NCBI GenBank assembly: GCA_029959085.1
Contig: JARWIR010000011.1
Span: 8,247,840 to 8,311,839, forward strand
DNA length: 64,000 bases
Direction of reading: 5' to 3'
DNA from: Nemophila menziesii
Lineage: Eukaryota > Streptophyta > Magnoliopsida > Boraginales > Hydrophyllaceae
Shown: positions 6,461 through 52,270 of the stretch, piece after piece
Position numbering within the stretch: position 1 is the first letter of the stretch
How the letters are laid out: each line of letters starts with the position of its first letter
Notes under the pieces: generated by a model
The model's database searches: none
Told to the model about the DNA's origin: nothing
Seen by the model: only the letters and a program-made list of their open reading frames with translations
Program-made: the position numbers and the translations under genes

Positions 6461-8195
6461 GTTTCGTTTTCCTTCTGTTGTTTATGTAAATGTGCTTTTT
6501 GTTATATTGTTGGTGATCTGTATGAAATAATTTTTGAGTGACACATGATTTAGTGATTTTTTCATTTCTTGTACCATTTAAATTACAGAATTTTTATTTA
6601 TTTATGTTTGTTGTTACTTATGTACAAACTGCTTAATTGCATGGTTGACTATAGCCTAATATAATGCATTACCACCACATCGTGTTAGAACCTTCAAGAA
6701 TCTGATAATTGTAGGACTACATGGCTTTGTATGACAGTCTCTCTTATATAAAACCTTTAGTTCAAGTCTTTAAACCAAGTTATCTCACGAGTAACTATTA
6801 TCTAGTTCAAATACCATTTTGACTAGGGTGTGTGGCATTCCTTAGAAAGAGTCTCTTTACTATACTTCATTTAGGCCAATAGTACTTCATTTTTGTCATA
6901 TTTTTTGCGAAAACAAAAGAGTCTCTCGACACTTACTATATGTGAGCTCATATGGACATTTATGAAAGCCTTCTTTTGAAAAATAAGTCTCGATTTGACT
7001 ATACCAAGGTCATGGGAGAAATTCTTGTGCAGACCCGAGTTTTGTGTTGTACACTACTTTGATTCACAGTCGGTTTTATGAGAAAAATATTGGGAGGCGA
7101 TGGCTGTTTTATGGGAAATGGACAGTTAAGAGTGCTTACTTGATCTTCCGGGGTATTGTTTGTTGATAAAGATTTTTGTTGTGTTGAATTATTTTACAAG
7201 GACTGTGTGTTATTTTGCGAAATTAAGGATACATGTCTTGCACCCACTTTTGGTATATATAGGTATGTGATTAAGATTTATGCGGCTTTTGGGAGACTAG
7301 CTAAGTGTAGGGATGTTTGACAAGAGGCAGAGATGGCTGGATTTAAGTTGGATAAGTATGCAAGAATAGGTAAATAAATCATGGGTTCAGTTATATGGAT
7401 TTAATTTAGGCATTTATTATCTTAACTCTATGCTAGGAAATTTGTATGTTTACACTTGACTCGTTATTCTTAACTACTGAGTGGGAATGCGTCCAACCCA
7501 GTCTTTTGAGATTATCCATGATATAATAGTCAATTTGTGATCATTTTTTATAAAATATTGGTCTATTGGGAACCCACTTTGATAAACTAATGATCAATTT
7601 AAATCCATCTTGATATATCAATATCCGATCATATCATATCCTGAAATTTATTTTGTTGTTGTTCTATTGAAGAATAGGTAAGACCATTGGTTCTATTGTT
7701 GTTAATTCTAATGGCTACTACTTATTCTTTGTGTTAGCTGTCTCTCATGAAGCATTCTACTCCCTTCCCATTTCTCGTCACAACCTCACCCACCACCACC
7801 ACCATATCTTAACGCCCTTACGTAACCTCTCACTCTCCACCTATTCTTTCAACTCCAATTTATATTACATTTTAAACTTATTACTCCATGTTACAGCTCA
7901 TAGGAAGAAAAAAATCAAGGCTGGAGAAACTATTCAGACCGCCGTTCATCCATTGACCACCCGCAGCAATGGTCTTTTCATTTGTTTAGCAACAATTTAC
8001 TTATATTGAGACCATAATTCTCGGATCGTGAATGTATCGTGAATCAAAATGATACTTTTTTAAATCGTTTATAGTATCAAATTATGAATCATAACGCTTC
8101 AGATATTATATTTAAATATATAATATATTCAATATGTATTATATTTGATATTTTTTATAAATATAAATATAAAAAATAATGTAAAATATTTTTTA
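6460..8195. other. Spacer between copy 0 and the array
   Basis: Mostly non-coding. One plus-strand stretch at about 7270-7375 reads IYAAFGRLAKCRDV, a stop, then EAEMAGFKLDKY. This has the look of a pentatricopeptide-repeat (PPR) protein helix pair. No array of such repeats surrounds it, so it is only a possible relic. About 8040-8190 is a very AT-rich segment with short palindromes. Short ORFs elsewhere have no recognisable content. Confidence 0.35.
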
Positions 8196-8598
8196 TTAAT
8201 ATGCTTGGCATATAAATTATGATTTTATATTTTTTGAAATTTAAATTATACTTTTTGAATAATGCTAATTAATGAATTTATTTTAACCACACTTAGAAAA
8301 ACTATATATACATATATATTTTAATTCATCAATTTTAAAAAAAAAACAATATTAGTAATTCATTAACAATTTTCACCTCCACTAAATAATTACATAAATT
8401 GTAATAAAAATAACTAATTGCAAACACTCCGCACGTTGCATCACAAGAGAAGAAGAAAAAAAGTAACTATAAAACTAAATCAATAAGGACAAAAAGGAAA
8501 AAAGACACAAATTAGTAAACTATATAAAATTCATCTACGGTAAAAAAAACTTTCATATGGATGAATAAGTATAACCAAACAAATCCAAGAGACAAAAA

Positions 8599-8647
8599 AT
8601 GAAGAAACAAAAAGGAAATTTGAAAGCCCAGCACAACAGATTTGAAG
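8599..8647 (+). other. Candidate first exon, conserved in all four units (U1 copy)
   Basis: An ATG opens 16 codons (MKKQKGNLKAQHNRFE). A strong donor, GAAG|GTAAGTT, follows. The same block recurs at 16139-16182, 30590-30638 and 37535-37582. Those versions begin MNKQKENLKAQQ, MKKQKDKLKAQQSRFE and MKKQKKKLKAQHSRF then stop. The U2 version has a 5-bp deletion that changes the phase, and the U4 version ends in TAA and has a weakened donor (GTATGT). I do not recognise the peptide. It could instead be a non-coding stretch that happens to carry an ATG and donor. Confidence 0.3.
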
Positions 8648-9046
8648 GTAAGTTAAACATAGAAGATAAGTAAGGGTTTTGATTAGGATTATTATATCAG
8701 GGTTGGATTTTAATTTCGTAATTGTGTAATTAAACATATAAGTTCGGTGAGGTTTGTTTTATTTTTTTATTTCTGAATAGCAACGATTTGGGTTTTTGAT
8801 AGTATGATTCAGTCCGATATAGAATCGCCTTCACTTTCGATACAAAGGCATATATGTATCAATCGTATTGTACCATAAGGTGAACAAAGATGGGCTCAAA
8901 AAATTTCACAGCCTTGGGTAAAATCATAGAACAGATCAATTTCTAATTTCAAGTAATGGTATGATGTATATGTAAACAGAGATATACCTGGAGCTATTAT
9001 GTAAATATGTTGTGGAATAACTCTACATGAAAGCACTAGTTAGGGG

Positions 9047-10004
9047 GTAATTAATTTTTAATATATTTCTCAATTCATTCAAGCTCAAAAACATAGATCT
9101 TCCATTCTAAATATAGTCTATTTTAAAGCTATTGTATAAGAAATTTTAACACTCATTGTTAATTTTGATAAAGTTTAATGGATTTCGAAGTATAGAAGAA
9201 TACAAATAATTATTGTCTCAGTTGGTTCAAGCATCATTTTAGGCGTTTATATCTCACTATAGAAACAATGGGACATGATTAGGCTCTTGGTATGGAAATA
9301 GAAAAACTAATTATTACAAAAAACATTTTTGGTAAATTAAGAGTTTATATCATATGTCAATTGTACTTTTTTTTACAGAATTTTGAATTAGATTTTGCCA
9401 ACTAAAAGTAATTACAATTTTCAGTTCAGCCGCTCAACAATGAAAAAGGGGTCATGTCGTCACTGTGGCACTGATATTAAGTGTCCTATTTCATATCTCA
9501 GCCATAATATATTAATTGCCAAAAAAACTTAGCAATTAATAGATTACGACCGAGATATGAAATAAGACGCTTACTATCAGAGCCACATTGACAACATGAC
9601 CCCTTTTTCATTGTTGAACGGCTGAATTGAAAATTGTAATTACTCTTGAATTGGCAAAATCTAATTCAAAATTCTACAAAAGAAGTACAATTGAAATATT
9701 AGTTAAACTTTCAATTTTCCAAAAATGTTGGCTGTAATAATTATTTTTTCTATTTCCATAGCAAGAGCCTAATCATGTCTCATTGTTTCTATATTGAGAT
9801 ATAAGCGTCTAAAATGATGCTTGAACCAACTGAGACAATAATGATTTGTATTCTTCTATACTTCAAAATAAATTAAGCTTTTTCAAAATTAACAATGACT
9901 GTTAAAGTTTATTATACAATAGTTTCAAAATAGACTACATTTAGAAAAGAAAAGCTATGATTTTGAGTTTGAATAAATCGAGAAATAGATCAGAAATTAA
10001 TTAC
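9047..10004. repeat. Long inverted repeat (hairpin), U1
   Basis: Arm 9047-9519 pairs with arm 9532-10004 around a 12-base loop (CAAAAAAACTTA). The tip reads ATTAATTGC...GCAATTAAT. The base reads GTAATTAATT...AATTAATTAC. The arms carry matching landmarks such as AAAAAGGGGTCATGTCGTCA against its complement TGACAACATGACCCCTTTTT, and they look about 90% identical by eye. No ORF is seen. It may be a foldback or MITE-type element, or a source of double-stranded RNA if transcribed. I found no clear target duplication beside it. Confidence 0.85.
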
Positions 10005-10850
10005 GCGTGTAACACTGTAGAAAGATCCTTTCGTTGAAACCAAGGTGAAATTGTAGAAAATGAAATGTTGAGGCGCTCTTTTCGAAAGAATGAAATGGAT
10101 ACACGCTATACGCGATCATGTTTTCTCAGTGATATGACCAAAAATTGTTTACGGGTTTACTGAATAAAAAAGGCTCAAATTTCACACATGAACTTTTAGA
10201 GATTATCCTAATTAGTGTGAGACTCATGTTCCTGAAGATCAACAATTCTCTACATTGACGCATCTTTCATGTGGAGCTCTTGCTGGTTTATTCAGACAAA
10301 CTATAATAAAATGATGCTTGAACCAACTGAGACAATAATGATTTGTATTCTTCTATACATCGAAATCAATTAAACTTTTTCAAAATTAACAGTGAGTGTT
10401 AAAATTTCTTATACCATAGCTTCAAAATAGACTACATTTAGAAAAGAAGAGCTATAATTTTGAGTTTGAATGAATTGAGAAATATATTAGAAATTAATTA
10501 CGCGTGCAACACTGTAGAAAGATTTTTACGTTGAAACCAAGGTGAAATTGTAGAAAATAAAATGTTGAGGCGCTCTTTACGAAAGAATGAAATGGATACA
10601 CGTTATACGCGATCATGTTTTCTCAGTGATATGGCCAAAAATTGTGTACTGGTTTACTGAATAAAAAAGACTCAAATTTCACACATGAACTTTTAGAGAT
10701 TATCCTAATTAGTGTGTTTACTAAAAACTCAAAGACTCATGTTCCTGAAGATCAACAATTCTCTACATTGACACATCTTTCATGTGGAGCTCTTGATGGT
10801 TTATTCAGACAAACTATAACGTATCCTTAAGATGTTGTTAGTAGTCAAAG
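9811..10850 (+). repeat. Tandem duplication with 497-bp period, U1 only
   Basis: The string AAAATGATGCTTGAACCAAC starts at 9811 and again at 10308. Each copy runs from the outer part of the hairpin's right arm into the first carrier exon. The first copy stops after CAGACAAACTATAA, and the second continues through the exon's donor. The first copy has also lost the segment reading TGTTTACTAAAAACTCAA, which the second retains. U2-U4 lack this duplication. Confidence 0.85.
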
Positions 10851-11283
10851 GTAGGTAGGTTAATTATTTAATTATTAACCTTTTAAGCATGTTGAATTGT
10901 AGAAATTATGGATAATATGTCTTTTTGGTTAAGGTTGAGCATTTTTTATCTTTGGCTAAAAGTGAGCTTTATTTCCGAAACTCAATTCATGATCAAGGGT
11001 GGAGACAAATATTTACTAGACTGAGTATTAATTACTTTAAGGTAAAGAAGGGTGGAGATAAAACATTTGTTGGATTGAGTATTAATAACATTAAGGTAAA
11101 GGATCATAATTATTAGAGATTGATTAATATTTTTTGTTGTTTTGATAGTGTGACTAAAAGTAACATGTTTGTAGAGTTTTGGTTATAGATTGTTCCTTTT
11201 ATGGCGATTGGATTTACAACATATGAAATGATAATGTGTTGGCTCAGTGTTTCCGCTAGAAAAATATCAAAGACAGTGAGTAA
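10652..11283 (+). pseudogene. Mitochondrial carrier gene fragment, three exons (U1)
   Basis: The first exon (10652-10850) ends in a block matching HVPED...LSCGALAGLFGQT.TYPLDVV, the signature of plant mitochondrial substrate carriers of the CoA/adenine-nucleotide type. A GTAGGT donor follows. Here the P-L-D motif is broken by a stop (TATCCTTAAGAT). The second exon (10934-11042) gives DQGWRQIFTRLSINYFK, matching the carrier's penultimate matrix-helix region. The third (11189-11283) gives IVPFMAIGFTTYEM. Membrane carriers of this family have six helices, and only parts of the last two or three are present. The upstream half of the gene is not in the unit. U1 has lost the first exon's AG acceptor. 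Confidence 0.75.
10997..11099 (+). repeat. 51-bp duplication of the carrier exon-2/intron boundary (U1)
   Basis: Two adjacent copies of GGTGGAGACAAATATTT...CATTAAGGTAAAG-type sequence lie at 10997-11047 and 11048-11099. Each includes a potential AAG|GTAAAG donor. Equivalent pairs occur near 24172-24270, 32488-32590 and 46998-47097, so the duplication predates amplification of the unit. Confidence 0.75.
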
Positions 11284-12223
11284 TATTTGTAGTTGTTAGG
11301 GTGTTAATTGTTTAGTTTCAGTTAAGTAATATTTGTAGGCATTGACTTAATATTTATAAGTCATGGATTGAACTTGATTTATGTAGGGAAAATGACTTTT
11401 CCATCACCACCCAACAGTTCACTATTTCACAAATGATCTTTGGTTCAATGGATGAGCGTTCTAGAGCTAGAGTTAAACGAGAATAATGAAATTTTTTCTT
11501 GATATCCATAAACCAGTCGTATTAGCGTTAGATGAAAGAGTTTTTTGGAATGTAATTTATTGTTAAAAGCAAATAATAACACTTAAAATTAAGAATTCGC
11601 CTAATATTTGACAAAATATTATCAATAGTGTAACTTTCAAGCAGGTCGTGCCTTTTTTTAATATTGTCCGGACAAGTTATGTCGTTTAAAAATAATGTTT
11701 TACCATTGCTTGGCCAAAGTCTTAGCAACATCATGTATTGTACCTTTTCCAGCCAAAAGATGTCTAGTAAACTACATAGTTTGTTATTCACTAAACTGCT
11801 ATCGCATCATTTGTTTCTGCAAGTGAAAAAAAAATTATTCAATACTAAAGGTTGATCTAGAATAGTTAAAATCAAAATCAGTTTCATATTTTGATCTAAA
11901 GATATCCACCAAACCAAAGGTAAGCAATATTATATCTAGACTTGGGAATGATGTTACCCATAAAGCTTATGTTGGAGCTCCGTCACTTCCTATCTGGTAT
12001 ATTTTTATATACAATGTTCAAATTTGTTTAAATTTATAAGATTTTAGATGATAAACCGTGTGTATGTGAATTCATGGGATTTGTGTAGAGTTTGAGGATC
12101 TGTGTGTGTAGAGTTTAGGTGATACTTATTGTAAACTTAAAAAGTTCATCTCTAGTTCACCATGTATTATTGATTTATTACTTTTTCCACAGTTACAACC
12201 TATTAAATTAACAATTTTTTCAG

Positions 12224-12336
12224 CTAATGGATCCTAAGGTGTTAAAAAAAATTACTAACATCTAAAATCTTTAAATGTAGATTAAGTTGTTGTAAATTGT
12301 TGGTGGGCTATAGTTGAAGGATGGATAGCTCAGAAA
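12224..12336 (+). pseudogene. Beta-amylase exon fragment (U1)
   Basis: After a TTTTTTCAG acceptor, the exon encodes a degraded version of [16 protein letters not shown], then [17 protein letters not shown] in a shifted frame. The second block is the N-terminal signature of plant beta-amylases (glycoside hydrolase family 14). The adjoining DPEGV..EL motif suits the BAM7/BAM8-type subgroup. The frameshift sits at TTTAAATGTA between the two motifs. In U1 the VDGV motif is further damaged (GTAGATTAAGTTG). No other amylase exon was recognised in the unit. Confidence 0.75.
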
Positions 12337-14959
12337 TTGTTTTTTGTCTCCTTATAGGTTTCTCCAAAATTGCTTCAAATTTTTTTGTTTATCACTGATA
12401 TAGTATGTTATGATGCGACTATTAATTGAGCATCACTTTGATTATTCAGGTTATTACTCGGTGTATTGATCTTATATTTTTCACTTGCAGATGGAAATAA
12501 AATATTTTTATAAAAACGTTAGGGGTGTAAAGAGAATTCTGTAAAGTATAGGGGTTTTATGATGGCCATAATGCATTATTTGGTTTTCTTGCAGTTCAAA
12601 CCTTGGAAAATTCAATTCCAGCACCTCCTTCACACTTTAAGCTGTAAGATGATAATTAAGTTGGAAGTTCATTGAAAAATTATCTATCATAGTTGGTGTA
12701 AATTTACATAATGGTCGTTTATTTTTTTACTACTTTTCTAAAAAAACATCATCAAATAAAAACGAAATTGAGAAATAAATTAAATTAGTATATGCTTCTA
12801 TACCATTGGTCCCCGTTTCTCCAAGCCGTCACATTCGTTTCGGTATGTGTATTATATACCATTTTTTCTTTATTGTAATTTATTTAGAATGTTGGATTGC
12901 CTAAATAGAGTAGTGGTCTAACAAGGAATAGAATTGAAGATTAAGTAATTAATTTTTCACTCAATTCTTCATATTACTTAGTTTCAAGAGCATAATATGA
13001 CGTGTTGGATAAACCGTTAAAAGAAAATGTTGTGTGAGTAACTGAGTTAAAAGGTCTTATTTTGAACAAGTTGGAGATTCCCTAATCTAAATATTACAAA
13101 CTTTATTTCAGTATGTATCTTTTGTACAAATCTACTATTACTTAGTGTGTTTTCTCCACATTTTTTTGAGGAGTTTAAGATGTCAAGAGATGATGCAAGA
13201 GAATAATTAGTTTAGGGACCATGCTGGACTTAAACGTGGCAAAAATTCTCTCAGGCTCTCTAGTGGTAACTGAGCATTACAAAAAACAGACATGTTAACA
13301 CCCGAGATGGTAACAATGCTAAAATAAAAATATTAGCAGTTAAATGTTGTCAATAACTAAATCTTTAAAAGAACCTCACAATGAAAATCTCCAACTACAA
13401 TGGAACTAGGAAACTCAAAACCAACAAACAGATTAAAACTACCAAAGACCCATCCACTAAACCAAAATAATATTTTGGTAAACCGAAGTCAAAACAACGC
13501 TAGTTATTTCAGAAACATAAAATCCTACATAAGCACACAATCTAAAAAAATCGAAGTGATTTTATCCACCAAATAAATCAAAGCTGACAAGCATCCATCA
13601 ATTAACCCACAAAATTGACCTTAGAAACCAAAACTGAAAAAGAAACACAAGAAATTCACTTAACAAATTATTTAACTAATAAAGCCCACAACAATTTTAA
13701 ACTGTTACACATGCATAAAATCCAGTAAAAATACACACAACTCATTTAAAACCCACACCCGACCAATTAAGAAAACATGCAACCTATTTTAAAAAATAGA
13801 AAATTCATTAAAAAATACAAACCCATTAAGAAGTAGCTCATAGGAGAAAGCACTACTAAAACCTTGAAGGTCACCCAAAACTAATTCTTAAAACATTAGA
13901 CTACTTGTTCACATTAGTCCGAGATATTCTACTTGTTCAAATAAAAATTAAAAATTTTTGGATCATCATCCCCAAAAACAACTAAATAAGTTCTTTGAAA
14001 GATGACTGGCCCTCCTCAAACCCATATATATCGTCAATCTACAAGTATAAGTTCACTCTTTACATTTTTCTTCTCTATCTACACATAAAACATAAACTAA
14101 TAGTTAAGTGAATAAAAAATAGTAATTTTTCTAATTAATTATTATACATTAAGTGTTTTGTATATATATTTTTTCAATTCTATCAGGATTATTTAATACA
14201 TATAATTGAGTAATATCTTGATGTTTAATATTTAAAAAAATTATGATAGGCTATGCTTTGAAAAAATGATGTTTCGAGACTAGGGATTGGTTGATTTTTC
14301 TAGACCTCTGAAGTTTCTTTACATGTATCAAAACATAAACAACATGTACAATGATGTTTAGCTAACCAAATAATCAACACTGTTTTACATTCAAACAAAA
14401 TAGTATATCAGCATAGAGGTAGACCAAATTCAAACTAATTAGTTTTATATTTTTCACATTATGTACACATGTCTATTTTTCACTTTTAATTAATTAAGAT
14501 ATAGTGTAATGCCATATCAAGATACCTAATAAAATGATAAGCTCATTAGCCATGACATTTTAGTCAAATTCATTTCATTCTCACTTGTCATGATAAGACT
14601 TACTTGACACATATTAAGATAAAAATAAATTTGAGTTTTAACGAGATAATTTAGTTTTGAAAGTATGTAAGTTTGTTAAGTCTCACTAATTAGGATTTTC
14701 AAAGAGTTGTGTCAATCAACTTTTATAAATGCATATCGGCATAATGTAGCTACTAAATATTTCATATCATAATTCATAAGAGAATAAATTTAGAGATATC
14801 TTTATTTATTAATTTCTATGTTTTTTATGGTGATACAAGCATTTTAATAAGTGTATATAAAGAAATTTATTGTTTTAATGCTCCGTGATGAAATTTTACT
14901 GTTTTGGTACTTGTTACCATAAGATATTCGCTTATGATTTTATTATTTTCTTTTTTCTA

Positions 14960-15540
14960 GATAGAAAATGAATGTCCAATACTTTGATGGTGGTGGAACT
15001 AACAGTGGTCCTTATTGGACTCAAGGACTGAATTGTTGAAGTAGCTATTATCAATTCGTTGATTGTGGTAAGATGAAGGAATACAATCCTCAATAATTGG
15101 TTATAAATATTGCGTCAAAGTTGGAGAGACGGAAAATAATAGAGGCTATGCAATAACAAAATAGTAAACTTCTGGACTTTCTATTCAAGCCAACCAAAAT
15201 AGTTGTCATGAGAAAACAGATGGTCCTCATAAAACATGACTCGTGAGGCAACACTTGAGGCAAATATATGCTATTTAAAGAAAAAAAATGAGAGGATGCA
15301 AGTACATTTGGTGAAACTTTGCATTTTACTTTATTTGGTTAGAGATTGTCACCTTAGAGGTGACTCGAGATTTTATGTTTCTTCTCATTTAACTGATTCT
15401 CTATATAACTTATTCTGTTACTTATTTTGTACATTTTGACAGTTTAATCCTTTGTTTAAAGGTCTTGGACCATATCTTCCATCTCAAGAAAAAGGCCGTC
15501 ATGCATAGCATTTCAACAAAGGAGGACATATCGTGTAATT
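14960..15540 (+). pseudogene. Unrecognised two-exon gene-like remnant at unit end (U1)
   Basis: After a TTTTTTCTAG acceptor, the frame reads HFDGGGTNSGPYWTQGL-like residues (here QYFDGGGTNSGPYWTQGL). It continues through stops to SKLERR..EAM, LLDFLFKPTKI and EANICYLKKKNE. A second block after AG at about 15461 reads GLGPYLPSQ, then HFNKGGHIV and a stop. The same pair occurs in U3 (36425-36967) and U4 (50883-51460). U2 keeps only the first part. The periodic open stretches suggest a captured gene fragment, but I do not recognise the family. Confidence 0.4.
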
Positions 15541-16175
15541 CACTTGTTTAGTCTAAACCCCTCTAATCTAATAATAGTATGCTTGTTTACCATACTTTAC
15601 AAACACGGGAAAGAGTGTGTAGTCATACTTCTTTATATGATTTTTATGGATTGATTACAAAATGTTAAATTTAATCTTTTATGTTTTTCTTGATGTACAT
15701 CTGCCCATTTTTATTTCCATTTAGATGAATATTTAACATGCTAATCATATATGCTTGCCATGTAATGATTTTATATTTTTTAAAATTTAAATTATAATTT
15801 TGACTAACGTTATATTAATGAATATATTTTAACCACACTTTAAAATTTTTCTATATACTTATATGTTTTGATTTATCAAATTTAAAAAAAAATAGTAATT
15901 CATTTTTAATTTTCACCTCCACTAACTAATTACATAGATTGTAATAAAAATAACAAACTGCAAACATCCACACGTTGCATCATAGGAGAAGATGAAAAAA
16001 AGTAACTATAAAACTAAATCAATACCGACAAAAAAGAAAAATCACACATATCAGTAAACTATATAAAATTCATCTACATTCAAAAAAAACTTTCATATGG
16101 ATGAATAAGTATAACCAAACAACTCCAAGCTAAAAAAAATGAATAAACAAAAAGAAAATTTGAAAGCACAGCAGA

Positions 16176-16189
16176 TTCGAAGGTAAGTT
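16176..16189. repeat. LINE target-site duplication, left copy
   Basis: TTCGAAGGTAAGTT here matches 22398-22411 exactly (14 bp) on the other side of the LINE. The duplicated target is the exon/donor junction of the candidate first exon, so the insertion separated that exon from the rest of the unit. Confidence 0.9.
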
Positions 16190-16288
16190 TTTTTTTTATC
16201 AAACCTACAATTTTATATTCACAAAATGACAAGTACAAATCAAACCCCTACTTGTTTTTTACTCAAAAACAAGCATGGCTAGGAAAAC

Positions 16289-16435
16289 AAACCCTATACA
16301 ACATTTACTAGAAAGTAAACCTATCAACTTGCAAGACAACCTATACAACCATTGCTAGAAAAATAAATCAAAGTAGAAGCACCCTATACAACTATTGCTA
16401 GGAAATTAAACCCTATACAACAATTGCTAAAGTCT
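16289..16435 (-). repeat. Minisatellite-like repeats in LINE 3' UTR
   Basis: Four imperfect copies of a CCTATACAACNATTGCTAG-type string, spaced about 30-60 bp apart, lie between the last coding block and the poly-A tail of the LINE. Confidence 0.7.
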
Positions 16436-16508
16436 TATACTAGGTCCAAGCTCCAAGCTATCTTCCTTGATCTTCTTGTTCTCCTCCCTTGAGTACTCCA
16501 TGTAGCTT

Positions 16509-38399: not shown

Positions 38400-38410
38400 T
38401 TCTCCCACTT
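38400..38410 (-). promoter_or_regulatory. Copia polypurine tract
   Basis: The minus strand reads AAGTGGGAGAA directly before the 3' LTR. This is the typical plus-strand primer of plant copia elements. Confidence 0.8.
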
Positions 38411-40399: not shown

Positions 40400-42150
40400 G
40401 AATAGAGCTCGTATTTCACATACCTTTCACATCAACAAAGATTTGAAAGATAACAACTCCTTAATTTTGACAAATCAAGTGTCATTCCTAACTTGTAGGA
40501 TATCATCTACATAGAGAATAAATTCATAAACTTCCCTTGTGGAACTTTTGATATGTAGACAAAGTGATATTCACATATCATTTTAAAAAAAATTATTGAA
40601 ATGACTCGTGAATCTCAAAAAAAATCATTGTCTTTGGGCTTGTGTGAGACCATAGATTGTCTTATTCAATCTACACATTGTATTTTCTTGGTCTTTAACA
40701 TCATATTCTAAATATTGTTCCAATGAATTTACTCTATTCTTTTATTCTCCATTGAGAAAAATCGTTTTGAAATCCTCTAGTGCAAATCATAATCAAGATG
40801 CACCACAACAGCTAGTATATAACCAAATGAGGTAAATCTCTCAACTATAGGAAAAATGTTTATTCCAAAAAAAAATTATTCCATATAATATAGCCTTTTT
40901 GCCATTAGACGAGATTCGTACCTCTCAAATGAAGTGTCTAGTTTTCTTCTCATTTCAAGAATCTATTTATTCTCAATCACTTGTGTCCTTCGGAAGATCA
41001 ACCAACTTTCTGAATTGATTTCTCTTCATTGGCTCCATCTTTCCTAGTAGGATATAAAGAGTTCATGTACTCTCTGAGGTTCTTCTTTGTCTTATGGACA
41101 AATCATACAGATTTATCCATGGATCTTAAATCGGCAACAAAAAATATCCCTCGATGACTCCCTCTAGGTGAAGTTATTGTGAAACAGATTCATTATGTGA
41201 TGCAATAATTTCTTTCGAGTCAAATTCGAGGCAATCTTGCCTTCCTCGTGCATGTGGTACCTTATCTAGTAACATGTTTAATTGCATACATCTTCATCAA
41301 CCTCATTTAATTCATGTAAAATGAGATTTTCAATAACCACACCTTTATTTAGGAAAAACATTACTATCCAAATGAAATATCGTGTAACTCAGTCTTAACA
41401 AATTCCATCATTATTTTCATCCTTGAACACATATCCTTTAGAGTCTTTGAAAATCTTCCAAAGAAATCATTCTTACCTTTTTGTGAACAAACTTTCCATA
41501 CTCATTGGATAAGTCACAAACATACCAACTCCCAGGAGATCAAGTATGAAAGGTGATATTTCTTTTATCCATAGTTCGTACAAAGTTTATGGAATTAAAT
41601 TTGTGGGTAAACGAATAAGTATATGAGTAGCAATAAAAAACTTATCTCCCAACCATATATTGAGAGATTTATTTGAGCTATCATACACCTTAATCAGGAG
41701 AGTTACATTCCTCCTTTTACCTACTATTCCATACCGTGGCATGTGAAAAATCATAAACTTATTTATGATCTCATTCTCATCACAACCTTCTTAAAAAAAT
41801 CCCTCAAATAGATATTCGTGATCATGGTTTCTTCTCAAGGTTTTACCCTTCCTCTCTATCTGATTCTTAAATTTCTAATTCACAAATTTGTGAAGCATCT
41901 CAGTGCTTCTAATTTGCGAGAAATCTGATAGTAATCACGAAACCATGTAAAATCATCTTAAGGTGATGAAATAGTATACCCCACATTTTGTTAATTAACG
42001 AGTCTACATATGTTAGCATGAATCAGTTCCAACGGATATTGAAATGAAGCTTTCAAAAAAAATCATATTACTTTCGTTACTAGGCAGTATCCACAGTTTG
42101 GCTAAAGAATTTTATCAAGTAAATAAAATGAATATCCTTCACCAACAATG
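40400..42150 (-). pseudogene. Copia pol remnant: integrase and reverse transcriptase
   Basis: Minus-strand pieces follow the usual copia order. Integrase: VYYFIT and KGKTLRRNHDHEYLFEGFF (about 42000-41820), then GIVGKRRNVTLLIKV (about 41735-41690), which matches the GVAERRNRTLL region. Reverse transcriptase: NQFRKLVDLPKD (about 41030), DYDLH (about 40790) and YVDDILQVRND with the catalytic YVDD at 40513-40502. Many stops and frameshifts separate these motifs, so no functional protein is encoded. Confidence 0.75.
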
Positions 42151-43056
42151 TGGTTCAGGTCATAACTATTATGACATAGCCTAACATTTTATAAAATTTT
42201 CCAATATCTTTAGTAATATAAAATCATAGAAAATCAACTACTATTAAAATAATAGCTCTTGTACTCAATCTTTTTCAAATACCAAAGAACCATTGTTCTA
42301 AAGATAGTTTCATATTATGTAGAACACTTATTGTTTGTCATGAACATGTGTACTGGATTTAATCACAGAAGAACAATGATTGAGACCAAGTTGTGCCAAA
42401 AGTTTGCACACCTAAGATATCATGTAGATACAAGGTTTGACCACTTCACAAGCTTAACTACTTATGCCAAAACCATTGACTTCAACATTATTGTTATCAT
42501 CTACATATATCCATCTTATACCAACTCAAATTTTCATTCATGGTACACTATATATAGGTCTCTCAATCTCTTGTCATAAGGTCTATTGATCCTAAGTCCA
42601 TAATCCACATAGGAAAAGATCAAATTAGCAACATGTGCTAGCGATAGATAAAAAAAGAAAATCATAAGAAAAAGATAATGCTACCATCTTTAGCTCGTAA
42701 GCTAAGTGACACAACTTGTCATAGATGTAGTATCTCATCTTACTCTTTTATTTCTTATGATCATACTTTATTTCCTTGTGACTAATTATCTTGATCTTCT
42801 TAGAGCCAGATATATCATCCTTTTTCTTTCAATCCTCTGGCTCTACACTGCATTTTCGTATGAGAGATAGACTCAGTAATATATGTTCAAGTATGAAGTC
42901 AAGAAACCTCAAATATACTCATTCTTGAGTACAACACAAGTAGCATCATCAAACATATTGATGTTATTACGAGTCACTCACTTTCTAATACTCTCAACTA
43001 TTTGAAAGAGATCGATGATTACTTGAATTTGTTGTTCTTAATTGAGGATATCACCA

Positions 43057-43128
43057 GATGTCTAGACTGCCCTAGTCACTTTAAAAACATCTGATGTCTA
43101 GACTGTCTTAGTCACTTTAAAACATCAC
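43057..43128. repeat. 36-bp tandem duplication in copia internal region
   Basis: GATGTCTAGACTG(CC/TC)... is repeated at 43057 and 43093 with three small differences. Confidence 0.8.
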
Positions 43129-43831
43129 TCTTAGGTGTATTAAATGACATGACTAGGTGTCCTTTTATGAGTATAATCTTTCATGTCATCTAACGCAACA
43201 CCGACATGGTAGTACCCTTGATCATCTCCTTAAGAGTATACACACATATCATAAGTGGTAGGATACTTGTGATACTCATAAACTAAACCATCCATATAAC
43301 TTATCACTATTTCTAAAATAATAGAGTCTGTATACCTCAAAAACTTGATAAGTCCATATGCTTCTCATGTGATGAATTGGAAGCCTTCCTCAAGCTCAAG
43401 CATCACATTATTAACAACCTCAAATTCTAGTACTCAATGTAATTCAAGTCATCTTAGGGTATAGTTATATCACCATTCATCTTTGTCCTTCTTTAAACGT
43501 CTAAAAGATGTTACTCATAGCCATTTTCTAGTATATCTAGAGACTTTCATTAATATATATAAAATATATTCAATGATACTATTCTCTCAAAATGCAAATT
43601 AAACTCGTAAATAGAAAACAAAAGAAGTGAAACAGAAAGTTCACTATGTTCCCAATCATGAATCACCATACTTTTTTTTATCTAATTATAATTCAATTTC
43701 ATCAAGACAAAATGATAAGTTCTCTACAGAACTCCCACTATTCTAATACAATCAATCAAGATTGAATACATTAGACCCGTATGATCTAGTGGTTATGGAA
43801 TCAAACTTATCCATAAAATAACTGAAGTTTC

Positions 43832-43852
43832 AATATATATATATATATACAT
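43832..43852. repeat. (AT)n microsatellite
   Basis: A run of alternating A and T, ending in ACATAT, inside the copia element. Confidence 0.8.
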
Positions 43853-44553
43853 ATGCAATTGACAAAATATATTATATTAACTAACAAGTAATGTATCAAA
43901 CGCATTTAAGATACACTAATTAACTCATACAAAATATCTAGAGTTTCACATTTATTGGGTTATGTGAAAACATGGTTAACTCATTCTATACACAAATATC
44001 AAATTCATGTTTAACATAATAAGATCATAAGTACACATACTTATAAGTTAAACATATAGGTATATACATCAAAACATGATAAAATAACCTATTGTTCATA
44101 TTACATTACTCTCATATATAAGTCTCAGTCATATAGTAAAAAAAATATATCCAAATAATAAAACCAATGGTGAATTTAAACAAAATATATGATTTAGGGG
44201 TTAAAGACAAAACCAAAAAAAATTGTCCTATTTGTACAATATAACTAGTTAAAAAACTAGTGTAACAGTAGGATGTTTTTATCTTTATCTTTGATCAGGT
44301 AGGATAAAAAACAAAACAAATGTGGTCCACATCATCTACCAACAGATGCAATAAAGAACTAAAACCAACTCCTAGCCAAACGGTTAGTCAATCACATGCT
44401 TTGCTTTGAGGTCAATAGTTCGTACCACATAACTGTCAAAATATTTTTCATTTTCAGAACAAATCTTTCAACAAAATGTGGCATTGCGCCATGTAGACCA
44501 GAAAATGGTTGCAGCGCAACGGAATGCACTACTAACTTCTCGTTGACCAACGG

Positions 44554-45281
44554 GTCTCAAGTAGGGGTGTGCGCGGGTCGGTTTTGTATGAAAAATGTTC
44601 AACCCACAAACCGCCCGTTCTTGTGCGGATTTTGAAAAATAAGACCCGCACCCGCCCAATACTTTACTTAAACCATTGAGTTTCGGGTTAGGTGGGTTGC
44701 GGGTGTATTGCGGGTGATTTAGTTCGATAAAGAAGACGAATTTGTATTCATATTCATTTGGCGAGTCAAATTTATATTACAAATTAGAATTATAACGAAA
44801 TATATTGTTTAGGATACGCATACGCATTTCAAATCATCTATGATTAAAAGATATAAAATGAGATTTTAGGAAACTAAATATATTAATTGAACAAAGAGTA
44901 CAGATAATATCATAATTGAAATGAAAAATGTATTCATTAGATAAAATAATATTGAAATATTGAGGGATTTCAAAATATTTTTAGAAAAGGGGGAGGAATA
45001 AAAAAAATGTAGAGTGTAAAGCACATGATCCCCACTATTTTATTTGAATAAAATGAGTAATACGGATTTTTCTAATTTTTATACTACAAGGTAATCGAGT
45101 ATATGCGGGTTTGCGGGTTTCAAGTTTACAATCCACAACCCGCAAAAATGTGTATATTTTTTCAAAAATGTAAACCGCAACCCATCCAATTAAAAACTAA
45201 CCCGTATAATTTCGGGTTAGTGTGAGCGGGTTGGTCGGGTTATGCGGGTTTTCTAACCCGATGCACACCCCTAGTCTCAAG
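44554..45281. mobile_element. hAT-type non-autonomous element nested in copia (712 bp core)
   Basis: The core 44562-45273 starts TAGGGGTGTGC and ends GCACACCCCTA. The direct repeat GTCTCAAG flanks it at 44554-44561 and 45274-45281. An 8-bp duplication and a TAGGGGTG terminus are typical of hAT elements. The subterminal regions are rich in CGGGTT/AACCCG repeats in both orientations. No transposase frame is seen, so the element would have depended on one supplied elsewhere. The 8-bp duplication is intact. Confidence 0.88.
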
Positions 45282-45385
45282 TTCAATACACGGCAGTTGC
45301 ACATATTTTGACCTTTTTTTTTTTTTTTTTAAAAAAACAGATCAGTAAACAAAGTAAGGTAGTGCGCCTATCAGATAGAAAGTTT

Positions 45386-45492
45386 AAAGGAGCGCAGCGG
45401 AGTAATAGTTTATTATGGACTGAGAGGTCTACGGTTCGATCCATGGCAGTCACTTTGCCGCTCAGTTCCCTTTTTTTTTTTTTTTTTTTTTT
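45386..45492 (+). repeat. Probable tRNA-derived SINE fragment
   Basis: A box-A-like GCGCAGCGGAGT (about 45392) and an exact box B GGTTCGATCC (45433-45442) lie about 43 bp apart, as in tRNA genes and SINEs. A T-run follows at 45471-45492, as in some plant SINEs. Clear target duplications were not found, and no tRNA cloverleaf is evident. Confidence 0.4.
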
Positions 45493-45778
45493 AATTTTTC
45501 TAAAATCCGAATGCAAAAAACGACGGCGTTTTTAACCGTCTTCTCCACCAGTCCAGAATCCGAGAACCCCATGAAAAAACTTCAAAAAATCGTATCTTTT
45601 TCGTTTTAAATCCAAATTTAACGAAATTTTCACCATTAAATTCCTTATTTCGAATAGAATATAAATCTATAACTTTAATTTAATTTTAAGACTCTCATAA
45701 AATTAAATACATATCAGATCAAATATATAGACATGTATTAAACATTTACGGCATAAAAAAGCATTTCGAAAAACGAAC

Positions 45779-45796
45779 ACAAAGCTCTGATACCAT
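45779..45796 (-). promoter_or_regulatory. Copia primer-binding site, initiator-Met-tRNA type
   Basis: The minus strand reads TGGTATCAGAGCTTTGTG beside the 5' LTR. TGGTATCAGAGC is complementary to the 3' end of plant initiator tRNA-Met, which fixes the element's orientation. Confidence 0.92.
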
Positions 45797-45797
45797 T

Positions 45798-46172
45798 TGT
45801 AAGAAAATTAAAGGTTACAGACAAACCTTTTAGGCGGAATTAAGAATCGAAATGCTTTCCGGTGTTGAATCTACTTACATGACGAAGAAGATTACTATTC
45901 AACAACATAAATGCCTTTGGATATCGAGTGATATGTTAATGAGATCTTGAAAGAATTTCTATTGAGTTTTGTTTCTTTAAAGTATAAGACAAGAGCAGAA
46001 AGAATGAAAAAGAAACGGAAGTCTGCAAATTGATTTCTAATTTTCTCATTGTGAAATAACTTCCTAAATTTATTTATATATTATTTATTCAAATAATAAC
46101 TACCACAATATGGGCCGGGCTAAACTATCATGGGCACCACAATATGGGCCAGGCCCAAACCAATTTCTTTCA
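45798..46172 (-). repeat. Copia 5' LTR
   Basis: Same length as the left LTR, with 7 differences from it. It should carry the element's promoter, but I see no decisive TATA box to point to. Confidence 0.92.
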
Positions 46173-46613
46173 CTGATCTATTTGTCAATTCATTCAAAGT
46201 CACAAAGCATAGTTCTTCCATTCAAAATGTAGTCTATTTTGAAGAGTATAAGAAATTTTAACACTCATTGTTAATTTTGAAAGATCTTAATTGATTTTGA
46301 AGTATAGAAGAATACAAATCATTATTGTCTCGGTTGGTTCAAACTTCATTTTAGGCGCTTATATCTCAATATAAAAACTATACGACATGATTAGGCTCTT
46401 GGTATGGAAATAGAAAAACTAATTATTACAAATAACATTAAACTATCAATTTACCAAAAATGTTGTTTGCAATAGTTAATGTTTCTATTTCCATACCAAG
46501 AGCCTAACACGCTTTTAATTTGGTATGTCCACTATATCTTGCTTTTTATTGTGGTTTTTGAACTTAAATACGCGATCATGTTTTCTCAGTGATATGATCC
46601 AAAATTGTTTACG

Positions 46614-47277
46614 GGTTTAGTGAATCGAAAAGGCTCAAATTTCATACTTTAACTTTTATAGATTATCCTAATTAGTGCGTTTACTAAAAACTCAAAGACT
46701 CATGTTCCTGAAGATCAACAATGCTCTACATTGACGCGTCTTTCATGTGGAGCTCTTGTTGGTTTATTCAGACAAACCATTGCTGGTTTATTCAGACAAA
46801 CTATAACGTATCCTTTAATTGTTGTTAGTAGGCAAAGGTAGGTATGTTAATTCTTTAATTATTAACCTTTTAAGCATGTTGAATTGTAGAAATTATGGAT
46901 AATATGTGTTTTTGGTTAAACTTGAGCATTTTTTACCTTTGGCTAAAAGTGGGCTCCATTTAGGAAACTCAATTCATGGCTTACTAATCTTATTCGTGAT
47001 CAAGGGTTGAGACAAATATTTCCTAGACTGAGTACTAATAAGGTAAAGAAGGGTGGAGACAAATATTTGCTGGACTGAGTATTAATTATATTAAGGTAAA
47101 AGATCATAATTGTTAGAGATTTATTAATATTTGGTGTTGTTTTGATAGTGTTCCTAAAAGTAACATGTTTGTGCAGTTTTGGTTATAGATTGTTCTTTTG
47201 TGGCGATTGGATTTACAACATATGAAATGATAATGTATTGGCTCAGTGTTACTACTAGAAAAAGATCAAAGACAGTG
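46614..47277 (+). pseudogene. Mitochondrial carrier gene fragment, three exons (U4)
   Basis: The first exon (46614-46837) contains a private duplication of about 36 bp (GGTTTATTCAGACAAAC occurs twice, near 46760 and 46785) within the GLFGQT region. The second (about 46920-47045) keeps LIRDQG. The third (47189-47277) has lost a base, which shifts the IVP.VAIGF frame. The acceptor of the first exon is mutated (TTTACGGG). Confidence 0.7.
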
Positions 47278-48222
47278 AGTAATATTAGTAGATGTTAGGG
47301 TGTTAATTGTTTAGTGTCAATTAAGTAATATTTTTAGGTGTTGACTAAATATTTATGAGTTATGGATTGAACTTGATTTATGTAGAGAAAATGACTGTTC
47401 CATCACCACCCAAGAGTTCACTATTTCACAAATTATCTTTGGTTCAATGGATGAGTCTTTTAGAGTTAAACGAGAATGATGAAATTTTTACTTTATATCC
47501 ATAAAACAATTCTATCAGCACTAAAGGAAAGTTTTTTTTTGGAATGTAATTTACTATTAAAAGCAAATAATAACACTTAAAAATAAGAATTTTCCTGATA
47601 TTTGACAAAGTATTATCAATAATGTAACTTTCAAGCAGGTAATGCTTTTTTTTAATATTGTCCGGACAAGTTATGTCGTTTAAATATAATGTTTTACCAT
47701 TGCTTGTCCAAAGTCTTAGCAACATCGTGTATTGTTCCTTTTCCAGCCAAAAGATGTCTAGTAAACTACATAATTTGTTATTCACTAAACTGCTATAGCA
47801 TCATTTGTTTCTGCAAGTGAAAAACAACATATTTTCCATTACTAAAGGTCGATCTAGAATATTTAAAATCAAAATCAGTTTCATTTTTTTATCTAGAGAT
47901 ATCCACCCAACTGGAGGTCAACAGTATTATATTCAGAGATGGGTAAGATGTTACCAATAAAGCTTATGTTGGAGCTCCGTCACTTCGTATCTGGTATATT
48001 TTTTATATACGATGTTCAAATTTGTTTAAATTTATAATATTTTAGGTGATAAACTGTGTGCGTGTCTGTTCATGTGATTTGTGTTGAGTTTGAGGATCTG
48101 TGTGTGTAGAGGTTACGTTATACTTATTGTAAGCTTTAAAAGCTCAACTCTAGTTCACCATGTATTACTGATTTATTACTTTTTCCATTGTTACAATCTG
48201 TTAAATTAACAAAAAAATTCAG

Positions 48223-48337
48223 TAAATGGATCCTGAAGGTGTTAAACAAGAATTACTAACATCTAATATCTTTAAATGTAGATGGAGTTGTTGTAAATTG
48301 ATGGTGGGGTATAGTTGAAGGATGGACACTTCAGAAA
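48223..48337 (+). pseudogene. Beta-amylase exon fragment (U4)
   Basis: It contains [13 protein letters not shown], the shared frameshift, then VDGVVVN with a TGA replacing the Cys codon of NCWWG, and WGIVEGW. Confidence 0.75.
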
Positions 48338-50882
48338 TTGTTTTTTGTCTCTTTATAGGTTTCTCCAAAATCACTTCAGATTTGTTTGTTTATCACTGAT
48401 ATAGTATGTTATGATACGACTATTAATTGAGCATCACTTTGATTATCCAGTTTATTAGTCGGTGTATTGATCTTATATTTTTCACCTGCAGGTGGAAATA
48501 AAATATTTTTATAAAAACGTTAGGGTAGTAAAGAAAATTCTTTAAAGTTTAGGGGTTTTAAGATGGCAGTAATGCATTATTTGGTTTTTTTGCAGTTCAA
48601 ACCTTGAAAAATTCAATTCCAGCACCTGTGTCACACTTTAAGCTGAAAGATGATCATTTAGCTAGAAGTTCATTGAAAGATCATCTATCTATCTTAGTTT
48701 GTGTAAATTTACATAATGTTCGTTTATTTTTTTTCTACTTTTCTAAAAAAAATCATCAAATAAAAACGAAACTAAGAAATAAATTAAATTATTATATGTT
48801 TATATACCATTGGTCCCTGTTTCTCCAAGATGTTACATTTGTTTCGGTATGTACAGTATATATAATTTTTTCTTTATTTTAATTTATTTTAGAATGTTGG
48901 ATTGCCTAAATAGAGTAGTCGAACAAGGAATAGAATTGAAGATTAAGTAATTTATTTGTCACTCAATGCTTCATTTACTTAGTTTCTGGAGCATAATGTG
49001 AAAGTGCTGGATGAACCATTAAAATAAAATTATGTGTGAGTAATAGAGTTGAAATTTCTTATTTTGAACAACTTGGAGATTCCCTAATCTGAATATTTAC
49101 AAAATTATTTCGGTATGTATTTTTGTACAAAACTACTGTTACTTCAATGTGTATTCTCCATCTCGTTTTCAGAAGTTTAAGCAGTCAAGAGATGATGCAA
49201 GAGAATAATTAGACATGTTATCACCCGAGATGGTAACAATGCTAAAACTAACAATATTAGCAGTTAGGTATGGTCGATAAATAAATCTTTAAAAGAACCT
49301 CACAATGAATATCTCCAACTGCAATGGAACTAAGGAAACTCAAAACCAACAAAATGATTAAAACTACCAAAGATCCATCCACTAAACCAAAACAATTTTT
49401 TGTGAACCGAAGTCAAAATAACACTAGGTATTTTAGAGACAAAAAAAATCCTACATGAGCACACAATCTATAAAAATCGAGGGGATTTTATCCACCAAAT
49501 AAATCAAAGCTGACAAGCATCCATCAATTAACCTACAAAATTGACCTTAGAAACCAAAACTGAAAAAGGAACACAAGAGATTCAGTTAACAAATGATTTA
49601 ACTAGTAAACACATGCATAAAATCCATTATAAATACACATAAATCATTAAAAAACCACACCCGACCAATTAAGAAAACATGCAACCTATTTTAAAAAATA
49701 GATAACCTATTTTTGGAAATAGGAAAATCAATAAAAAATACAAACCCATTAACAAGTACCTTTTGGTTTTATGGGTAAAAAATATAATTTGGCTCATAGG
49801 AGAAAGCACTACTAAAACCTTGAAGGTTACCCAAAACTAATTCTTAAAACATTAGACTACTTGTTCATATTAGTCCGAGATATCCTACTTGTTCAAATCA
49901 AAATTGTAAATGTTTGGATCATCTTCCCCAAACACAACTAAAGAAGTTCTTTGAAAGACTACTAGCCCTCCTCAAACCCTAATATATCGTAAATCTACAA
50001 GTACAAGTTCACTTCTTACATTTTTCTTCTCTATCTACACATAAAACATAAACAAATAGTTAAGCGAATAAAAAATAGTAATTTTTTATGTTATTTATAT
50101 ATTTGTTCAATTCTAACCAGATTATTTTATACATATAATTAAGTATCTTGATGTTTAATATTTTAAAAAAAATTATGATAGGCTATGCTTTGAAAAAATG
50201 ATGTTTCGGGACTAGGGATTGGTTGATTTTTTTTGGGGACCTCTGAAGTTTCTTTACATGTAACAAAACATAAACAACATGTACAGTGATGTTTGCTGAC
50301 CAAATAATCAAAACCGTTTTACATTCAAACTAAATAGTATATCAGCATAAGGGTAGACCGAATTCAAACTAACTACTTTTATATTTTTCACATTATGTAC
50401 ACATGTCTATTTTCATTTTCACTAATTAAGATATAGTTTAATGCCATATCAAGATACCCAATAAAATGATAAGCTTATTAGCCATGACATTTAGTCAAAT
50501 TCCTTTTAGTCGAATTCATTTCATTCTCACTTGTCATGATAGGACTTACTCGACACATATTTAGATATAAAGAAATTTGAGTTTTAATGAGATAATTTAG
50601 TTTTGAAAGTATGTAATTTTGTTAAGTCTCACTAATTAGAACTATCAAAGTGTTGTGTTAATCATCTTTTATAAATACATATCGCCATAATGTAGCTGCT
50701 AAATATTTCATATCATAATTCATAATAGAAGAAATTTAGAGATATATTTATTTATTTATTTGTATCATTTTAATGGTGATACAAGCATTTTATTGTTTTG
50801 GTGCTCGTGATAAAATTCTACTATATTGGTACTTGTTTACCATATAATATTCGCTTATGATTTTATTATTTTCTTTTTTCTA

Positions 50883-51460
50883 GAGATAAAATAAGGGTCC
50901 AACACTTTGATGGTGGTGGAACTAACAGTGGTCCTTATTGGACTCAAGGACTGAGCAATTGAAGTAGCTCTAATCAGTTGGTTGATTCTGGTGAAATGAA
51001 GGAATACAATCCTCAACCATTGGTTATAAATATTGTGTCAAAGTTCGAGAGACAGAATATAACAGAGGCTATGGAATAAAAAAAAAGTAAACTTCTAGAC
51101 TTTCTCTTCAAGCCAAACAAAATAATTGTCATGATAAAACAGAGGGTTCTCGTAAAACATGCTCATGAGGCAACACTTGAGGCAAATATATGCTATTTAA
51201 AGAAAAAAAACGAGGATCCAAGTACATTTGGTGAAACTTTGCATTTTTTCTTTATTTGGATTGAGATTGTCACCTTAGAGATGACTCGAGATTTTATGTG
51301 TCTTCCCGTTTAACTGATTCACTATATAACTTACTTCATTACTTATTTTGTACATTTTGACAGTTTAATTTTTTGTTTAAAGGTCTTGGACCATATCTCC
51401 CATCTCAGGAAAATGGTCTCCATGCATGGCATTTCAACAAAGGAGGACATATTGTGTAAT
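50883..51460 (+). pseudogene. Unrecognised two-exon gene-like remnant at unit end (U4)
   Basis: A TTTTTTCTAG acceptor, HFDGGGTNSGPYWTQGL, then EMKEYNPQPLVINIVSK and LLDFLFKPNKIIV. The second block from about 51385 carries GLGPYLPSQENG and HFNKGGHIV, followed by a stop. This is the most readable copy of the block, but stops remain. I do not recognise it. Confidence 0.4.
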
Positions 51461-51569
51461 CCACTTGGTAAGTCTTAACCCCTCCAATCTAATAATAGTA
51501 TGCTTGTTTACCATACTTTACAAACACGGGCAAGAGTGTGTAATCATACTTCTTCATATTCTTTTTATA

Positions 51570-52270
51570 ATAGTATGCTATGTTACTTGTTAAAGTAGGC
51601 TCTATGTATATAGATCCATATGAAGACAAGATAAATCATTCAAAAAATAATTGTTGTCTTTAATTGTTGTACATAAATCAGATCAATAAAATTTGTGCAT
51701 TCATCCAAATTTATTATAAATTTTGTTCTTTTATTCATTGAGTTTCTATGGTGGATGGTACTCTATTCAAGTGGATGTATGAGGCTCTTAAAAAGTTTCA
51801 AGATGAGACGTCGCAAATATTCAGACTCACGACCCTAGAAAATACAAATTAAAAATTAGAAAATACAATAGAAAAGTATTGGAAGTTTATCGGAAAAAGT
51901 TTATGTTTGTCTAAAAACCAACAAAGGTTTATTCTATGGTGGTGTCTAATTTGTTAATAGCCCTCACACTGTTTTGGAGAATCTAAATATTTTAGAACCT
52001 TTTGTTTAAAAGAATGAACAATCATTCACAGGTGAAGACACAATTTGTTTCAAAATATTGAGATAAAGAAATCTAGTAACTATATGAAAAAAATGTTTGA
52101 AACCATCATTTATAAGAGTTATGATGGATATAGAGGTTGAAAATATAGAATCATTCATGAAAGAAGAAGATGAATTGTTTCACACTTTGTGTGGTTGCAT
52201 TCATAGCAGTTTATTACAACATAATATTACTTTATAATCTTATATAAAAGATAATTAAAATTTAAATTAT
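51570..52270. other. Spacer right of the array
   Basis: AT-rich sequence with no recognised gene or repeat. Homology to the other units stops at its left edge, and copia-like coding begins at its right edge. Confidence 0.5.

What the first reader, a model, noticed from the sequence alone, without database searches (positions are those of the whole stretch)
8195..51570. Tandemly amplified unit that joins fragments of two unrelated genes to a long hairpin
Seen: the same order (ATG/donor block, hairpin, three carrier exons, amylase exon, unrecognised exon blocks) is repeated four times in one direction. A fifth, older partial copy lies at 4400-6460. Known: mitochondrial carriers and beta-amylases (GH14) are unrelated genes and are not normally neighbours; Helitrons and Pack-MULEs pick up and join gene fragments. 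Inference: an element captured pieces of both genes, and the result was then amplified in tandem, possibly by unequal crossing-over. I did not find Helitron termini (TC...CTRR with hairpin) or MULE terminal repeats with 9-bp duplications at the unit edges, so the capture agent is unknown.
Basis: partly seen in the sequence, partly recalled or inferred. Interest (0 to 1): 0.8.

Follow-up and report, generated by a model that had tools for sequence, protein, structure and literature searches.

The report
Decayed tandem array of gene fragments
A stretch of what looks like plant DNA holds four decayed head-to-tail copies of a 7-kb patchwork containing a piece of a mitochondrial carrier gene, one exon of a beta-amylase gene and a long hairpin; it looks like ordinary non-coding debris that was duplicated in a burst rather than a new kind of element.

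Summary
Four direct units of about 7 kb lie at 8199-51568, 89-91% identical pairwise and almost equidistant. A LINE, a solo-LTR-like insert and an 8.1-kb LTR element interrupt them. Each unit carries three exons, with introns, for the C-terminal third of a CoAc1-type mitochondrial carrier, and one exon of beta-amylase 8 (BAM8). A palindrome (0.94 kb in the consensus) is present in U1-U3; U4 keeps a remnant. The "fifth copy" (4445-6444) is real, but matches only the unit's last quarter and is much older.

In 6 of 6 species that could be compared, the two source genes are not neighbours. Capture by a single element is not supported: no Helitron-type junction, no terminal inverted repeats. The carrier piece is far more decayed than the BAM8 piece, which suggests separate acquisitions. 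The BAM8 frame was already broken before amplification.

Best reading: a stepwise patchwork made by repair-linked insertions at one locus, amplified in a short burst of tandem duplication, then decaying without visible selection. The host genome could not be searched, so the capture agent stays open. New member of a known kind; modest interest.

The parts
8199..15534 (+). Unit U1 (lacks about the first 210 bp present at the start of U2-U4; carries a private ~500-bp local duplication 9810-10306 / 10307-10819)
15535..30071 (+). Unit U2, split by a LINE (16190-22397) and ended by a 1.73-kb insert (28324-30052) that replaces about 400 bp of the unit's end
30072..36963 (+). Unit U3, the least interrupted copy
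36964..51455 (+). Unit U4, split by an 8.1-kb LTR element (38025-46172); palindrome reduced to a remnant
51456..51568 (+). First ~113 bp of a further unit; right edge of the array
4445..6444 (+). Older, diverged copy of only the last ~1.6 kb of the unit
9047..10004 (.). Palindrome in U1 (outer arms 327 nt, 88% complementary)
22815..23613 (.). Palindrome in U2 (arm pairs 93 and 96% complementary, part deleted)
30963..31924 (.). Palindrome in U3 (folds at -372 kcal/mol as DNA)
46173..46506 (.). Remnant of the palindrome in U4; the LTR element sits at its left end
32204..32773 (+). Three carrier exons in U3 (about 32204-32320, 32400-32537, 32681-32773), matching residues ~225-339 of a 341-aa CoAc1, with two intron-like gaps
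10732..11281 (+). Carrier exons in U1 (in-frame stop in the first)
23933..24452 (+). Carrier exons in U2
46695..47280 (+). Carrier exons in U4
33579..33737 (+). BAM8 exon fragment in U3 (clear from 33660)
12238..12336 (+). BAM8 exon fragment in U1 (in-frame stops)
25392..25524 (+). BAM8 exon fragment in U2
48205..48337 (+). BAM8 exon fragment in U4 (in-frame stops)

Best explanation
This is a dead tandem segmental array in what looks like a plant nuclear genome. Step 1 (inferred): at one locus, intron-bearing genomic pieces from unlinked places were laid side by side: the 3' part of a CoAc1-type carrier gene, later one exon of a BAM8 gene, plus pieces without coding matches. The likeliest route is filler DNA or template switching during repair of double-strand breaks, not capture by one transposon. 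Step 2 (structure shown, agent inferred): a ~0.94-kb palindrome, probably a fold-back or MITE-like insertion, was in the unit before it multiplied. Step 3 (copies and near-star divergence shown, process inferred): one such unit became four head-to-tail units in a short time, by tandem duplication or unequal crossing-over. Step 4 (shown): the units have since diverged independently, and were hit by a LINE, an LTR-like insert and an LTR element. I see no sign of a protein or RNA function.
For: Pairwise identity is 0.89-0.91 for all six pairs. Of 5187 four-way sites, 810 are changes private to one unit; splits 12|34, 13|24 and 14|23 have 37, 13 and 19. All four units share an extra base, relative to BAM8 proteins, in the amylase exon (alignment, frame change), so it was broken before amplification. 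The carrier piece is further from the listed carriers than these typically are from each other (exon A median 0.737, lowest reference median 0.789; exon C 0.516 against 0.613; 118 references), while the BAM8 piece sits at ordinary ortholog distance (26 residues: 0.808 and 0.808; 50 references). Carrier exons are separated by intron-like gaps with splice-like borders (by eye), so the source was DNA, not mRNA. No Helitron-type junction and no inverted repeats at the unit's ends. The internal unit starts carry ~100 bp (37077-37176 in U4) found at neither outer edge, as filler at a duplication junction would be. Palindrome arms in U1 and U3 are no more alike within a unit (0.877, 0.887) than the same arm between units (0.846-0.923).
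Against: No genome-wide search was possible (genome search did not answer in 10 tries), so dispersed copies with sharp common ends cannot be excluded. The ~100 bp missing at both edges could also come from erosion of the array ends. U2's palindrome arms are more alike (0.936, 374 sites) than arms between units, which could mean some upkeep or chance. The age contrast rests on 38 BAM8 residues, on references that include many near-identical tomato entries, and leaves out the poorly aligned carrier exon B. 80 of 132 translated segments were not scanned with Pfam. No donor breakpoints were seen.
Confidence: 0.6

Rival explanations
1. A non-autonomous DNA transposon (Pack-MULE, Pack-hAT/CACTA or Helitron type) captured both gene pieces and was then duplicated in tandem; its ends have since been lost or were never kept inside the array.
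For: Such elements are known to carry captured host gene sequences (passages of PMC13317346 and PMC8277862 seen). The unit contains a long palindrome with matching ends (consensus 1016-1957).
Against: No CTRR-TC type junction with an upstream exact stem at any phase on either strand, and only AT-rich 9-mers as inverted repeats at the array edges. In U3 plus the next junction, inverted repeats outside the palindrome are at most 21 nt and 81-85%. Only a 7-bp T/A repeat is shared by the two edges. No transposase domain in the 52 of 132 segments scanned. The two pieces differ in decay.
Confidence: 0.2
2. The palindrome is itself the driver: a fold-back element that stalls replication, so that template switching both pulled in the gene pieces and produced the tandem copies (as proposed for Ssk-FB4 fold-back elements in flies).
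For: Palindrome present in three units and as a remnant in the fourth, so it predates the amplification. PMC8277862 links fold-back repeats with template switching and reports tandem duplications in them (passages).
Against: The palindrome lies inside the unit, about 800 bp from its left edge, not at the duplication junction. No breakpoint was traced to it. Its arms show no upkeep in U1 and U3, though they are more alike in U2.
Confidence: 0.12
3. Simple segmental duplication of a region where the carrier and amylase genes were neighbours in an ancestor of this host.
For: Both pieces are in the same orientation about 800-900 bp apart in U3, and the carrier piece runs nearly to its C-terminal end.
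Against: In 6 of 6 species with both proteins in the lists (120 of 303 listed; 50) the genes are on contigs of different length (5) or on contigs of equal length with locus tags 558 numbers apart (1). The pieces differ in decay.
Confidence: 0.08

Closest known systems
Pack-type TIR transposons (Pack-MULE, Pack-CACTA) and gene-carrying Helitrons of plants
   Same: Joins pieces of unrelated host genes in one unit (passages of PMC13317346).
   Different: No terminal inverted repeats at unit or array ends, no Helitron-type junction, no convincing target-site duplication; copies are seen only in tandem in this window, and the genome could not be searched.
Filler-DNA / synthesis-dependent strand annealing insertions of genes in plant genomes (described in PMC3445842)
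   Same: Gene sequence from a non-collinear place used as filler in break repair; no element ends needed (passages seen).
   Different: Here the patchwork was afterwards amplified four-fold in tandem. In that paper the process accompanies transposon insertion, which was not shown here.
Fold-back linked template switching (FoSTeST, Ssk-FB4 in Drosophila; PMC8277862)
   Same: A fold-back repeat together with a captured gene piece and tandem duplications (passages seen).
   Different: There the chimera moved by transposition; here the copies are in tandem and the palindrome is internal to the unit.
Tandem pseudogene arrays from unequal crossing-over (recalled, no paper seen)
   Same: Head-to-tail units, no apparent function, similar decay in all copies.
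   Different: The unit is a chimera of fragments, not one gene.

Membership tests
Helitron (tandem Helitron array) | 5' TC, 3' CTRR with hairpin just upstream, joined end to end in tandem | tested here: not met
   Scan of the circularised consensus unit, both strands, exact stems of 6 or more with at least 3 G/C: none.
Helitron (tandem Helitron array) | Insertion between A and T without target-site duplication | not testable with these tools
Pack-MULE / Pack-TIR element | Terminal inverted repeats at the unit ends | tested here: not met
   Array edges: only AT-rich exact 9-mers. U3 plus next junction (30072-37176): outside the palindrome only three pairs of 19-21 nt at 81-85%.
Pack-MULE / Pack-TIR element | 8-11 bp target-site duplication | tested here: inconclusive
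   Near the two edges the longest exact direct repeat is TTTTTAT (7 bp, 8190 and 51562), T/A only; a 9-bp one lies about 40 bp off the left edge. The edges may be eroded.
Pack-MULE / Pack-TIR element | Dispersed copies in the genome | not testable with these tools
   The genome search did not complete (10 tries).
Fold-back / MITE element (the palindrome alone) | Long inverted arms with short or no spacer | tested here: met
   942-bp palindrome in the consensus, arms 0.94 alike; arm pairs in U1-U3.
Fold-back / MITE element (the palindrome alone) | Target-site duplication | tested here: inconclusive
   By eye: AATTAATT flanks TCTGATC...GATCAGA, but it is itself palindromic and the symmetry runs 4 bases further out.
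Tandem segmental duplication of neighbouring genes | The two genes adjacent in relatives | tested here: not met

The most novel reading that the evidence does not exclude
A palindrome-driven patchwork: the internal fold-back acted as a replication fork barrier that first let template switching stitch in pieces of unlinked genes and then drove head-to-tail amplification, giving a gene-fragment amplifier that needs no transposon ends.
Probability: 0.12. Interest if true: 0.55.

Novelty: new member of a known kind. Interest (0 to 1): 0.25.

Why it matters
It is a datable example of how a plant genome can turn pieces of unlinked genes into a repeated unit without an identifiable transposon. The four copies and the internal palindrome make the order of events partly readable. 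If the palindrome drove the process, it would be a transposon-free route to gene-fragment amplification. If not, it is ordinary genomic debris, and annotation pipelines should not call carrier or amylase genes here.

Tried and rejected
Other coding content in the unit: 52 of the 132 stop-free segments (28 aa or longer) of the consensus gave no Pfam match at E up to 1; the other 80 were not scanned as such. The block QTLENSIP..., after a splice-like acceptor, gave no protein with E up to 10 among 5 candidates. Three ORFs of the older copy gave no Pfam match. Rfam: 0 matches in the window at gathering scores. A weak NET2A_C match (E 0.0012) turned out to lie in the LINE and was discarded. Does U1 continue left of 8195? 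The local alignment score of 23 was reached by 84 of 300 shuffles, so there is no evidence for it. Helitron and inverted-repeat scans: negative; no direct repeat over 7 bp close to both edges.

Papers: searches for a carrier/amylase pseudogene array, BAM8 with BZR1 and long inverted repeat with gene fragment and tandem duplication returned 0 papers each; some searches gave listings from which I read passages of four papers. The library lacks most subscription journals, so this says little about novelty.

The host was not identified. Carrier matches are spread over flowering plants, with many Lamiales near the top, but the fragment is too decayed to place it.

Full report
Observation. The window is AT-rich, and its genes match plant proteins, so I take it as plant nuclear DNA. 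Self-BLAST shows four direct copies of a unit of about 7 kb between 8199 and 51568. In the phase I chose, U1 is 8199-15534, U2 starts at 15535, U3 is 30072-36963, U4 starts at 36964, and 113 bp of a further unit end at 51568. U2 is split by a LINE at 16190-22397 with a 14-bp target-site duplication TTCGAAGGTAAGTT, and is ended by a 1.73-kb insert at 28324-30052. U4 is split by an LTR element at 38025-46172 with a 5-bp duplication CTGAT and LTR copies 98.1% identical over 376 bp. With the LINE and the LTR element left out, the six pairwise identities between units are 0.892-0.906.

What the unit contains. (a) A palindrome of 942 bp in the consensus, arms 0.94 alike. It is present in U1, U2 and U3 and reduced to 282 + 69 nt in U4. 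U3's copy folds far better than 20 shuffles. (b) Three exons matching residues of about 225-339 of the mitochondrial carrier CoAc1, with short intron-like gaps between them. The best-scoring protein is an unnamed partial Brassica cretica protein; all 120 listed of 303 carry the carrier domain, and many are named CoAc1 or Graves disease carrier protein. (c) One exon of beta-amylase 8: 50 of 58 candidates at E up to 0.001, best 2.3e-13. (d) Several kilobases without a recognised match: 52 of 132 translated segments scanned with Pfam, none matched.

Dead before amplification. Relative to BAM8 proteins, the amylase exon has one extra base at the same place in all four units (alignment; the frame change shows directly in U2 and U4, while U1 has further private deletions), so the break predates the copies. 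A tandem repeat of about 52 bp at the end of the second carrier exon is also shared by all four, though it might lie in the intron. Further stops differ between units, e.g. in U1's first carrier exon and inside the BAM8 exons of U1 and U4. The carrier piece lacks the first two thirds of the protein.

Separate ages of the two pieces. The consensus carrier exon A has a median identity of 0.737 to 118 listed carriers (P0003-P0120), which have a median of 0.895 among themselves (986 sampled pairs). For exon C the values are 0.516 and 0.806 (953 pairs). Exon B was left out because it aligns poorly. The main BAM8 piece (26 residues) has 0.808 to 50 BAM8 proteins against 0.808 among them (1000 pairs); the 12-residue first part has 0.833 against 0.667. 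The carrier piece had thus decayed, or came from a decayed or divergent source, before the BAM8 piece began to decay. This speaks for stepwise assembly, with the caution that the BAM8 piece is only 38 residues and its references include many near-identical tomato entries.

Not neighbours elsewhere. Six species appear in both protein lists (120 of 303 listed). In Lonicera macranthoides, Malania oleifera, Pistacia vera, Henckelia pumila and Magnolia sinica the contig lengths given for the two proteins differ. In Cinchona calisaya they are equal, but the locus tags differ by 558 numbers. This is 6 of 6 against adjacency, judged from contig length and tag alone.

Amplification. Of 5187 sites readable in all four units, changes private to one unit number 215, 202, 204 and 189, while the three possible groupings have 37 (U1+U2 against U3+U4), 13 and 19 sites. 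The copies therefore arose within a short time, with slight support for U1+U2 against U3+U4. With substitution rates of 7e-9 to 1.3e-8 per site and year (recalled, from no call), 0.10-0.11 substitutions per site would mean roughly 4-8 million years. Identity per 300-column block is mostly 0.85-0.94; four blocks between columns 601 and 2400, in and around the palindrome and U1's local duplication, hold values of 0.74-0.84. The palindrome arms are not kept alike in U1 and U3 (0.877 and 0.887 within the unit, 0.846-0.923 between units), while U2 has 0.936 within. I see no clear sign of selection.

Edges. The left edge of the array lies at unit phase ~214, the right edge at ~113. The 100 bp in between are present at the internal unit starts but at neither outer edge, and there is no evidence that the left flank continues the unit (84 of 300 shuffles do as well). 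This fits filler DNA at the first duplication junction, or erosion of the ends. No Helitron-type junction was found at any phase and no inverted repeats beyond AT-rich 9-mers at the edges. Across U3 and the next junction, all inverted repeats over 21 nt belong to the palindrome. The longest direct repeat close to both edges is a 7-bp T/A word.

The older copy. 4445-6444 matches only the last 1.6 kb of the unit, at 59-85% in pieces, well above shuffles. Its right end falls near the phase where I start the unit. It shows that this part was duplicated at the locus long before the four-fold amplification. It gives no evidence that the gene pieces or the hairpin were there then.

Mechanism. The sequence shows joined genomic pieces, a palindrome older than the copies, a fast tandem amplification and later independent divergence. 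I infer that the pieces came in by repair-linked filler insertion or template switching. Passages in PMC3445842, PMC13317346, PMC8277862 and PMC4683698 describe known routes of gene capture; I read passages only, not whole papers. PMC8277862 connects fold-back repeats with template switching and tandem duplication in flies. That is the boldest reading open here, but nothing in this window ties a breakpoint to the palindrome.

Limits. The agent of capture therefore remains open.

Noticed in passing
window 38025-46172: LTR element, apparently on the minus strand: LTRs 98.1% identical over 376 bp, 5-bp duplication CTGAT, and a stretch beside the right LTR that looks complementary to initiator-Met tRNA (recalled). 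None of its 22 ORFs of 55 aa or more matched Pfam at E 0.01: all matches are assigned to ORFs outside it. Probably non-autonomous.
   Followed up: partly
window 16190-22397: LINE on the minus strand (reverse transcriptase pieces at 17870-18661, DUF4283 at 20451-20966) with a 14-bp target-site duplication inside U2.
   Followed up: partly
window 28324-30052: 1.73-kb insert that replaces ~400 bp of U2's end; part is 74% similar, inverted, to 58619-59848, which lies near a reverse transcriptase/RNase H ORF at 55352-56641; looks like a solo LTR.
   Followed up: partly
window 9810-10819: Private ~500-bp tandem duplication in U1 that copies part of the right hairpin arm and the first carrier exon.
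   Followed up: no
window 4996-5343 and 5355-5689: Diverged (71%) tandem duplication inside the older copy.
   Followed up: no
window 58460-59102 and 63357-64000: Direct repeat of about 645 bp at 88%, possibly LTRs, with a weak Transposase_32 match (E 0.00012, below its cut-off) at 61010-61468 between them.
   Followed up: no
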